From positions 22,911-86,910 of the forward strand of contig JAJTHB010000010.1 of assembly GCA_021299465.1 (NCBI GenBank): 64,000 nt of DNA, given 5' to 3'. A program made the translations under genes and the position numbers. The DNA comes from Rickettsiales bacterium. GTDB lineage: Bacteria; Pseudomonadota; Alphaproteobacteria; Rickettsiales; SXRF01. This document shows positions 30,872 to 31,618 of the stretch, one piece after another. How positions within the stretch are numbered: the stretch's first letter is position 1; each line of letters opens with the position of its first letter. The notes beneath the pieces are model-generated. The model saw nothing but the letters and a program-made list of their open reading frames with translations. It had not been told where the DNA came from and ran no database searches.

Positions 30872-31282
30872 ATGTTCGATAGCTCGATTGGTGAAAAAGC
30901 CAACAATATCGCCCAGCAAGCAACCGAGCTGGCTGAAGAGGTGAATGCACTGCAGCTACAACTACAGCAAAATAGCGGCGTTGATCCATTTGTATTCGGG
31001 CTAACAGTTTTTGTGCTTGCTTGTTTTGTTGGGTATTACGTCGTGTGGAAAGTCACCCCCGCCCTTCACACACCTTTGATGGCGGTCACTAACGCAATTT
31101 CTGGAATCATCATCATCGGCGCGATCATCGCACTCGGGCCTGATGGAGGGGACTTTTCACATCTCGTAGGCTTTATCGCCGTTGTGATAGCCAGCATCAA
31201 TATTTTTGGCGGGTTCGTTGTTACTCAGCGCATGCTGTCGATGTTCCAGAATAAAAAATCCCTGCGAAAGCAGGGATCCTGA
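30872..31282 (+). CDS. pntAB: Transhydrogenase membrane subunit PntAB with altered C-terminus
   Basis: PntAB supplies the first membrane helices of the proton channel. It has 136 residues and starts at ATG behind a strong GGAGGAAATAA. About three helices lie near residues 40-60, 68-87 and 96-117. The conserved GGFVVTQRMLSMF is near the end. The last residues, SLRKQGS, are encoded by a palindromic element (31258-31281), so the natural C-terminus was probably replaced when that element arrived. The TGA stop lies inside the element and is directly followed by the ATG of the inserted nuclease gene. Confidence 0.92.
   Translation: MFDSSIGEKANNIAQQATELAEEVNALQLQLQQNSGVDPFVFGLTVFVLACFVGYYVVWKVTPALHTPLMAVTNAISGIIIIGAIIALGPDGGDFSHLVGFIAVVIASINIFGGFVVTQRMLSMFQNKKSLRKQGS
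31258..31281 (+). repeat. Left palindrome of the GIY-YIG cassette
   Basis: ATCCCTGC (31258-31265), loop GAAA, GCAGGGAT (31270-31277), then CCTG. It is a perfect 8-pair stem. It matches the reverse complement of 31591-31614 at 22 of 24 positions, and the two differences form one base pair of the stem (T-A here, C-G there), a compensatory change. Confidence 0.95.
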
Positions 31283-31618
31283 ATGAACGAAATGCGAAAA
31301 TTCTATGTTTATATCATGGCCAGTAAAAAAGAAGGCGTTTTATATATCGGTGTGACCGATGATATCAAACGTCGAGGTGGTGAGCATAAAGACACCATCT
31401 ATGAAGGTTTTACCAAAGAATATTTTGTGAGGCGTTTAGTTTATTTTGAAATACATCCTACCGCTGAAGAAGCGTCAAAGAGAGAAAAGCTGATGAAAAA
31501 GTGGAAGAGAGACTGGAAAATTCAACTGGTCGAGAAGCATAACCCTGAGTGGGTTGATATCTATGACTCAATACCGGGTTCCTGCGATGTCAGGATCCCC
31601 GCTTTCGCGGGGATATAG
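31283..31618 (+). CDS. GIY-YIG domain nuclease inserted in the pnt operon
   Basis: A 111-residue single-domain protein with KFYVYIMAS (GIY), LYIGVTDDIKRRGGEHK (YIG and catalytic Arg), a conserved Glu in REKLMKKWKR and NPEWVDI at the domain end. The last 16 or so residues, ending RIPAFAGI, are encoded by the right-hand palindrome, so the stop is within that repeat. The start ATG at 31283 immediately follows the pntAB stop; ATG 31292 is an alternative. It separates pntAB from pntB, which are normally adjacent. With its flanking inverted palindromes it looks like a mobile or once-mobile cassette. Confidence 0.88.
   Translation: MNEMRKFYVYIMASKKEGVLYIGVTDDIKRRGGEHKDTIYEGFTKEYFVRRLVYFEIHPTAEEASKREKLMKKWKRDWKIQLVEKHNPEWVDIYDSIPGSCDVRIPAFAGI
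31591..31614 (-). repeat. Right palindrome of the GIY-YIG cassette, inverted
   Basis: CAGG, then ATCCCCGC (31595-31602), loop TTTC, GCGGGGAT (31607-31614). Read on the minus strand it has the same layout as the left copy, a GAAA tetraloop followed by CCTG. It ends 7 bases before the pntB start. Confidence 0.95.

What the first reader, a model, noticed from the sequence alone, without database searches (positions are those of the whole stretch)
31258..31614. GIY-YIG gene bracketed by inverted palindromes inside the pnt operon
Two 24-base elements, one inverted relative to the other, bound the nuclease gene exactly. They differ only at positions 6 and 15, which form one stem base pair (T-A versus C-G), a compensatory change that indicates the hairpin itself is under selection. 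The left element lies in the last codons of pntAB and the right one in the last codons of the nuclease gene, removing any visible ribosome binding site of pntB. The layout resembles REP/RAYT elements, but with a GIY-YIG nuclease in place of the Tyr recombinase-like RAYT. It may be a non-autonomous or self-spreading cassette driven by a small GIY-YIG enzyme.
Basis: partly seen in the sequence, partly recalled or inferred. Interest (0 to 1): 0.72.

Follow-up and report, generated by a model that had tools for sequence, protein, structure and literature searches.

The report
Nuclease partner of orphan repeat palindromes
A small DNA-cutting gene sits between two matching inverted palindromes here and, in the same layout, in many distant bacteria, and it is likely the missing enzyme that cuts and spreads a widespread family of genome repeats for which a 2013 survey found none.

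Summary
In detail: two 20-base palindromes (31258-31277, 31595-31614), inverted and differing by one stem pair, bracket a GIY-YIG gene inserted between pntAB and pntB. Of 21 readable junctions only this genome and a same-genus one carry it; joining the flanks restores a normal pntAB end. The palindromes are a dispersed repeat here, often in tails-inward dimers, and resemble published CGTC-REP repeats but lack the outer tag. The layout is general: of 100 class-level genes found with a repeat-free query, 40 have tagged hairpins on both sides (control ORFs 0 of 30); of 78 loci from many phyla, 42 do (controls 1 of 189). Ends match each other better than ends of other copies in the same genome. 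Di Nocera et al. 2013 wrote that CGTC REPs seem to lack a dedicated transposase; this genome has no Y1 transposase. I infer that the nuclease is the REP-processing partner, a RAYT analogue from another superfamily. Cleavage and movement are untested. Against: 33 of 100 genes lack tagged hairpins, 8 of 9 repeat-bearing genomes rechecked lack the gene, only 1 of 4 small GIY-YIG genes here is bracketed, and repeat type changed around a Bradyrhizobium ortholog.

The parts
31258..31277 (+). left REP-like palindrome, 8-bp stem, GAAA loop; tail CCTGA (31278-31282) points inward and supplies the pntAB stop TGA
   Evidence: DNA hairpin -8.4 kcal/mol, z -5.6
31283..31618 (+). stand-alone GIY-YIG nuclease gene, 111 aa; its last residues RIPAFAGI are read from the right palindrome
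   Evidence: Pfam PF01541 E 2.6e-15; residues Y10, Y21, R31, H35, E68, N87 invariant in the 22 aligned sequences; dN/dS 0.11 against the same-genus ortholog
31595..31614 (-). right REP-like palindrome, inverted relative to the left one, one stem pair different; tail CCTGA on the minus strand (31590-31594)
31258..31614 (+). the whole inserted unit; joining its flanks gives pntAB ending MFQNKK* and the pntB start ATG 3 bases after the stop
30872..31282 (+). pntAB (4TM subunit of transhydrogenase); its last residues SLRKQGS are read from the left palindrome and its tail
31622..33013 (+). pntB, downstream flank of the insertion

Best explanation
The unit at 31258-31614 is a GIY-YIG nuclease gene bracketed by two inverted REP-like palindromes and inserted between pntAB and pntB, and the nuclease likely acts as the dedicated enzyme that cuts these palindromes and drives their spread. 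Shown: the anatomy, the absence of the insert from most relatives examined, the genome-wide palindrome family with the same inward tails, the recurrence of the layout across distant bacteria, locus-specific matching of the two ends, and purifying selection on the protein. Inferred: on one strand each end folds into an unusually stable DNA hairpin (GNA[A/G]-type loop, tails inward), as single strand at replication forks or as a cruciform; the GIY-YIG enzyme, whose nearest solved folds include the branched-DNA nuclease Slx1, would nick at the hairpin base; host replication and repair would then copy or paste the unit. Short tails-inward palindrome dimers would be its non-autonomous derivatives, as REPINs are to RAYTs. 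Joining into new sites is the least supported step, because I know of no GIY-YIG enzyme that joins DNA.
For: Bracketing by tagged hairpins within 120 bp: in the class-level set found with a repeat-free 96-aa query, 40 of 100 on both sides, 67 of 100 on at least one, 26 of 100 as a tags-outward pair (controls 0, 5 and 0 of 30); in genome-contig loci 42, 60 and 34 of 78 (controls 1, 26 and 0 of 189). End matching: inverted-repeat score >=36 in 43 of 100 true pairs against 3 of 289 pairs mixed across genomes, and in 31 of 70 against 10 of 200 mixed within one genome, the true pair beating all others in 53 of 70. A YhbQ-like GIY-YIG subfamily (8 loci) shows no bracketing pair among the printed hairpins, with inverted-repeat scores 14-23 (read by eye). 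Copy-number link over 192 genomes: gene present in 22 of 31 genomes with 3 or more CGTC-1-type hits against 35 of 161 others, odds ratio 8.8. No Y1 transposase at E<=0.01 in the window's genome. Dispersed copies in this genome: 17 neighbour pairs besides the cassette, 13 tails-inward, 4 with one undetermined partner, none in another arrangement. dN/dS 0.11, with both ends identical between two species at dS 0.69. Insertions in operons: pnt here; sufB-sufC in Azospirillum lipoferum (the four relatives fetched lack it) and in Shinella.
Against: Of 9 genomes with 3 or more CGTC-1-type hits and no gene at E<=1e-12, 8 also have none at E<=0.01, so the repeats exist without the gene. 33 of 100 class-level genes have no tagged hairpin on either side, and inward-facing pairs also occur (9 of 100; 9 of 78). 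In the order-level relatives 15 of 30 are bracketed on both sides, but one-sided tagging does not differ from controls (18 of 30 against 5 of 11). In the window's genome only 1 of 4 small GIY-YIG genes is bracketed. In Bradyrhizobium an orthologous gene at one site has 5-nt-loop REPs in some species and 4-nt-loop dimers in others, so pairing is not strict. Loop class follows the protein tree (25 changes against a shuffled mean of 46), but with host family controlled the signal is weak (41 of 63 against 33.5; 51 of 1000 shuffles as good). The window copy lacks the outer GTC tag. Among the loci compared I saw no near-identical copies at two sites of one genome; the best was one 83% pair in G124. 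Cleavage and mobility are untested.
Confidence: 0.6

Rival explanations
1. The GIY-YIG gene is a homing-type parasite of REP dimers: it cuts palindrome dimers that lack it and is copied into them by recombination, while something else made the dimers.
For: The gene lies where the spacer of a tails-inward dimer lies; GIY-YIG is a classic homing-nuclease fold (recalled); at one Bradyrhizobium site the unit occurs in both orientations relative to the flanks.
Against: In the printed empty junctions of the pnt and suf sites I see no such repeat dimer (by eye); the link of gene and repeat number and the lack of a Y1 transposase in this genome leave the dimers without another known maker.
Confidence: 0.2
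2. The palindromes are ordinary REPs that accumulate around a dispensable accessory gene, or act as RNA hairpins insulating it; the nuclease has no role in their spread.
For: REPs lie mostly between or behind genes in general (PMC3733652, passage of the abstract seen); some genomes have repeats without the gene and some genes lack repeats.
Against: Other ORFs of the same loci are bracketed in 1 of 189 and 0 of 30 cases against 42 of 78 and 40 of 100; ends match per copy inside one genome; the 8 YhbQ-like control loci show no bracketing pair.
Confidence: 0.15
3. A RAYT or other transposase moves the palindromes and the GIY-YIG gene is passenger cargo of a large REP dimer.
For: RAYTs are held to move GTAG-type REPs (PMC8266576, start of abstract in the listing; PMC3733652, passages read).
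Against: No PF01797 protein at E<=0.01 in the window's genome; PMC3733652 reports that none of the RAYT or IS200 genes in CGTC-bearing species is flanked by CGTC units; one protein family recurs as the cargo across many phyla.
Confidence: 0.05

Closest known systems
CGTC-tagged REPs, family CGTC-1 (Di Nocera et al. 2013; includes neisserial dRS3 and rickettsial RPE-6)
   Same: 8-bp stem beginning AT, 4-nt loop, short inward tail, dispersed, predominantly dimers with tags outside
   Different: window copies lack the outer tag and have tail CCT(G) in place of CCA; the paper lists no associated transposase gene, whereas here a GIY-YIG gene lies inside the dimer
RAYT (TnpA-REP) and REPtron/REPIN systems with GTAG REPs
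   Same: one small nuclease gene bracketed by inverted REPs plus many short dimers elsewhere in the genome
   Different: the RAYT is an HUH Y1 transposase; here a GIY-YIG nuclease of an unrelated fold, and no Y1 protein in the genome
Stand-alone GIY-YIG proteins UPF0213/YhbQ and the Slx1 nuclease
   Same: fold and core residues; nearest solved structures 1zg2 and Slx1 6seh
   Different: the 8 YhbQ-like loci examined are not bracketed by these repeats; Slx1 is a eukaryotic repair enzyme with a partner (recalled)
GIY-YIG homing endonucleases
   Same: selfish spread through cutting is plausible
   Different: no intron, intein or extra domain seen; only a sub-threshold match to TIGR01453

Membership tests
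CGTC-1 REP | outer CGTC/TGTC/CCTC tag | tested here: not met
   window copies are flanked by aaaaa and ATAG; 9 of 48 oriented copies read in this genome have GTC; many bracketed loci elsewhere do carry it
CGTC-1 REP | 8-bp stem starting AT, 4-nt loop | tested here: met
CGTC-1 REP | short tail, mostly CCA | tested here: not met
   tail CCTGA here; CCTG in 39 of 48 oriented copies of the genome (orientation was called from the tail, so this count is conditional)
CGTC-1 REP | many dispersed copies, tails-inward dimers predominant | tested here: met
   67 places; of 17 neighbour pairs besides the cassette 13 are tails inward, 4 undetermined
RAYT / REPtron | Y1 HUH transposase (PF01797) | tested here: not met
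RAYT / REPtron | gene bracketed by inverted REPs of a family dispersed in the genome | tested here: met
RAYT / REPtron | enzyme binds and cuts the cognate REP | not testable with these tools
   needs purified protein
GIY-YIG nuclease superfamily | Pfam PF01541 above the curated cut-off and core residues kept | tested here: met
   56.9 bits against 22.6; invariant Y10, Y21, R31, E68, N87 (their catalytic role is recalled from work on other GIY-YIG enzymes)
GIY-YIG nuclease superfamily | fold | tested here: met
   model of moderate confidence, pLDDT 74, pTM 0.64; Foldseek has no hit at E<=0.001, but the best ten rows are 1zg2 (E 0.0019) and Slx1 or Slx1-like structures (6seh E 0.024)
Homing endonuclease | resides in an intron or intein and homes into the empty cognate allele | tested here: not met
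   free-standing gene between pntAB and pntB; homing itself not testable

The most novel reading that the evidence does not exclude
CGTC-type REPs, present from Pseudomonadota to candidate phyla, are the mobile family of a GIY-YIG nuclease: a new class of minimal mobile element in which a ~95-residue structure-specific nuclease, with no transposase chemistry of its own, propagates hairpin-ended DNA with the help of host replication and repair. It would have evolved in parallel to RAYT/REPIN and would also account for dRS3 and RPE-type repeats in Neisseria and Rickettsia.
Probability: 0.45. Interest if true: 0.92.

Novelty: new variant of a known kind. Interest (0 to 1): 0.8.

Why it matters
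Di Nocera et al. 2013 (PMC3733652, passages read) left open what mobilises CGTC REPs, writing that they seem to lack a dedicated transposase. A specific, testable candidate is now named, with its substrate. If right, a large family of bacterial intergenic repeats gets a maker, and GIY-YIG nucleases gain a role as the enzyme of a minimal mobile element. If wrong, the strong linkage still needs another reason. My paper searches (open-licence PMC only, no preprints; some searches listed 20 of 96, 20 of 54 and 12 of 29 papers) showed no paper in their listings that links GIY-YIG genes to these repeats.

Tried and rejected
Promoter and terminator scan of the pnt region gave chance-level counts, so an RNA-insulator reading got no support. 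No match in the phage collection. Sinorhizobium hflX-mazG was tried as an empty site, but the relative also has the gene. Of 32 plasmid records with the gene I examined the brackets of 11: 8 have such repeats on both sides; Rhizobium L266 and Planktothrix L273 show none, and Photobacterium L272 has one far downstream. The search for repeat-dimer presence or absence between the window's genome and G001 gave one conserved dimer and one query with no long orthologous match: no polymorphism shown. The loop-class test of enzyme-repeat specificity was downgraded after host control. Early scripts missed loci on the minus strand; one search replaces them. The bracketing count came from a sample partly selected through the repeat-coded C-terminus, so I rely on the repeat-free query set. 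The genome contigs set and the relatives also used queries with that tail; they are reported as support, not as the unbiased test. Dropped before counting: 2 edge loci in each of the class-level and genome contigs sets, the window genome's own 2 places of the 104 listed, and control ORFs within 350 bases of the gene; one search kept 80 of 558 confirmed loci. One 83% pair of gene sites inside G124 was not followed. The organism was not identified by name.

Full report
What is there. The window carries pntAB (30872-31282), a 111-aa GIY-YIG gene (31283-31618) and pntB (31622-33013). The palindromes 31258-31277 and 31595-31614 are exact, inverted to each other and differ by one stem pair; 2 are found where 0.04 are expected. 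Both fold as DNA hairpins far better than shuffles (-8.4 and -9.6 kcal/mol for the GAAA strands).

It is an insertion. A search of 37 related genomes found pntAB in 22; 21 junctions could be read (one of them, L058, for only 82 bases past the stop). Only the window's genome and its same-genus neighbour G001 have the GIY-YIG gene there. Seven others have the pntB motif 59-75 bases behind the pntAB stop, and an eighth, L068, looks the same in the printed sequence. Five have another small gene in between, and in the remaining six the script found no pntB motif. Joining the flanks at the outer palindrome edges gives pntAB ending MFQNKK* followed by AATATG of pntB, and MFQKKDNT* in G001, like the MFQKKK* of two relatives. 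In the occupied site the left palindrome's tail supplies the pntAB stop, and the stop of the joined, empty-site pntAB now ends the nuclease gene.

The insert is old and kept. Between the window and G001 the gene has dS 0.69, dN 0.078 and dN/dS 0.11 over 108 codons; the left end (26 bases) and about 60 bases at the right end are identical.

The palindromes are a repeat family. The genome holds 67 places at up to 2 mismatches and none for the reversed control. In the 36 stretches that I read, 54 copies were found, 48 of them with a clear orientation; 39 of 48 have tail CCTG, like the gene's own ends, and 9 of 48 have an outer GTC. Besides the cassette there are 17 neighbour pairs: 13 are tails inward, 4 have one undetermined partner, and no other arrangement was seen. 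The gene cassette is thus one more dimer with a nuclease gene as spacer. Of the 4 small GIY-YIG genes in this genome it is the only one so bracketed.

The layout is general. In many relatives the gene is bracketed by hairpins GTCAT-stem-loop-stem-CCAG and their mirror image, with stems that differ between loci and agree within a locus. The same is seen in loci from Planctomycetota, Bacteroidota, Omnitrophota, Thermodesulfobacteriota, candidate phyla and others (both-side tagged hairpins in 13 named phyla). To avoid bias from the repeat-coded C-terminus I repeated the search with the first 96 residues over 192 genomes of the class: 57 genomes have the gene at E<=1e-12. I fetched the 102 listed places outside the window's genome and scored 100: both sides tagged 40, at least one 67, tags-outward pairs 26, inward pairs 9. 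Other ORFs of these loci gave 0, 5, 0 and 0 of 30 (ORFs within 350 bases of the gene were left out). In genome-contig loci: 42, 60, 34 and 9 of 78 against 1, 26, 0 and 1 of 189. In order-level relatives: 15 of 30 on both sides against 0 of 11, while at least one side is 18 of 30 against 5 of 11, no difference. Inverted-repeat scores of 36 or more: 43 of 100 true pairs, 3 of 289 pairs mixed between genomes, 10 of 200 pairs mixed within a genome against 31 of 70 true ones. Tags covary too: GCTC/GAGC in L142, ATC/GAT in L123.

Named examples. Azospirillum lipoferum 4B carries the unit between sufB and sufC, framed by two dimers; A. ramasamyi, A. oryzae, B510 and A. thermophilum have a short sufB-sufC spacer with no gene. 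Shinella PSBB067 has a unit with different palindromes at sufB-sufC (placed by blastn; the record is not annotated there). Novosphingobium aromaticivorans pNL2, Rhizobium CIAT894, Shinella WSC3-e and Aeromonas caviae have clear pairs, and Neisseria gonorrhoeae has several tagged repeats on both sides of the gene. In all, 8 of 11 plasmid-collection loci examined have such repeats on both sides.

Link in copy number. Pattern GTCATNCCNGCNNNNGCNGGNAT over the same 192 genomes: 31 have 3 or more hits, of which 22 have the gene; 35 of the other 161 have it; odds ratio 8.8, p 2e-7, and 8.0 without the window's own and a same-family genome. Genomes are not independent by descent, and the pattern sees only the 4-nt-loop class. 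Against the link: of the 9 repeat-positive, gene-negative genomes, 8 have no relative even at E<=0.01.

The enzyme. Pfam PF01541 and invariant core residues; AlphaFold model pLDDT 74; nearest folds UPF0213 1zg2 and the branched-DNA nuclease Slx1, none below E 0.001. The window's genome has no PF01797 transposase at E<=0.01, so no RAYT is at hand. On the tag strand 171 of 198 four-base loops are GNA[A/G]. GNA and GNNA loops on G-C pairs, such as d(GCGAAGC), are reported as extraordinarily stable DNA mini-hairpins (PMC4686876, passages read). This favours DNA hairpins as the recognised form, by inference.

Specificity. Loop class changes 25 times on the protein tree against a shuffled mean of 46 (148 labelled loci of 221), but with neighbours taken from other host families agreement is 41 of 63 against 33.5. 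At one Bradyrhizobium site an orthologous gene has single 5-nt-loop REPs in L099, L122 and L124 and 4-nt-loop dimers in L134, L137 and L138, with both ends changed together; in L140 the unit is flipped relative to the flanks. The ends therefore turn over faster than the gene.

Known background. CGTC REPs were described by Di Nocera et al. 2013 (PMC3733652; passages, among them of the abstract, and the second part of the discussion read), with tag, 8-9-bp stem, 4-5-nt loop, CCA tail and predominant tags-outward dimers. The paper states that they seem to lack a dedicated transposase, and the term GIY-YIG does not occur in its main text. In the 2006 GIY-YIG survey (PMC1564403, passages read) no word beginning palindrom- occurs. 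In the 2025 RepRanger paper (PMC12306157) the words transposase, nuclease and RAYT do not occur, and a Bradyrhizobium repeat paper (PMC5082802, passages read) does not contain GIY. Searches pairing GIY-YIG with REP, RAYT, REPIN, CGTC, dRS3 or Rickettsia palindromic terms showed nothing relevant in their listings.

Verdict. The association is solid. The role of the nuclease as the enzyme that cuts and spreads the repeats is the best explanation and is untested. It works like REP/RAYT but is not a member of it.

Noticed in passing
window 13738-13989: A second small GIY-YIG gene (83 aa, YhbQ-like) without repeat brackets; hairpins AGCAAGC-ttc-GCTTGCT and CTCGTCACTAC-gtca-GTAGTGACGGG lie just upstream.
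   Followed up: partly
window 31595-31618 and some homologues (L023, P0030, P0039): The palindrome is translated as a C-terminal peptide (RIPAFAGI, KIPAFAGM), so repeat-coded tails decorate these proteins.
   Followed up: partly
L054, L060, L062, L063, L066 between pntAB and pntB: Five relatives have a different small gene at the same pnt junction, unidentified.
   Followed up: no
L273 (Planktothrix agardhii plasmid) 2004-2288: A GIY-YIG relative without brackets sits between an MmeI-type restriction gene and DISARM drmA.
   Followed up: no
L041, L044, L248 and L120, L132: Some GIY-YIG genes without tagged short hairpins share longer inverted repeats between their flanks (GTCATTGCGAG... in the first three; GTCATTCCGGG...CCCGGAATCCA in the last two), which may be further repeat classes with the same partner.
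   Followed up: no
G124 loci L249 and L250: Two gene sites in one genome are 83% identical over 591 bases, beyond the gene on both sides: a possible older duplication of a unit.
   Followed up: no
Bradyrhizobium L099, L134, L140, L152: Repeat ends of an orthologous unit were swapped in concert between species, and one copy is inverted relative to its flanks.
   Followed up: partly
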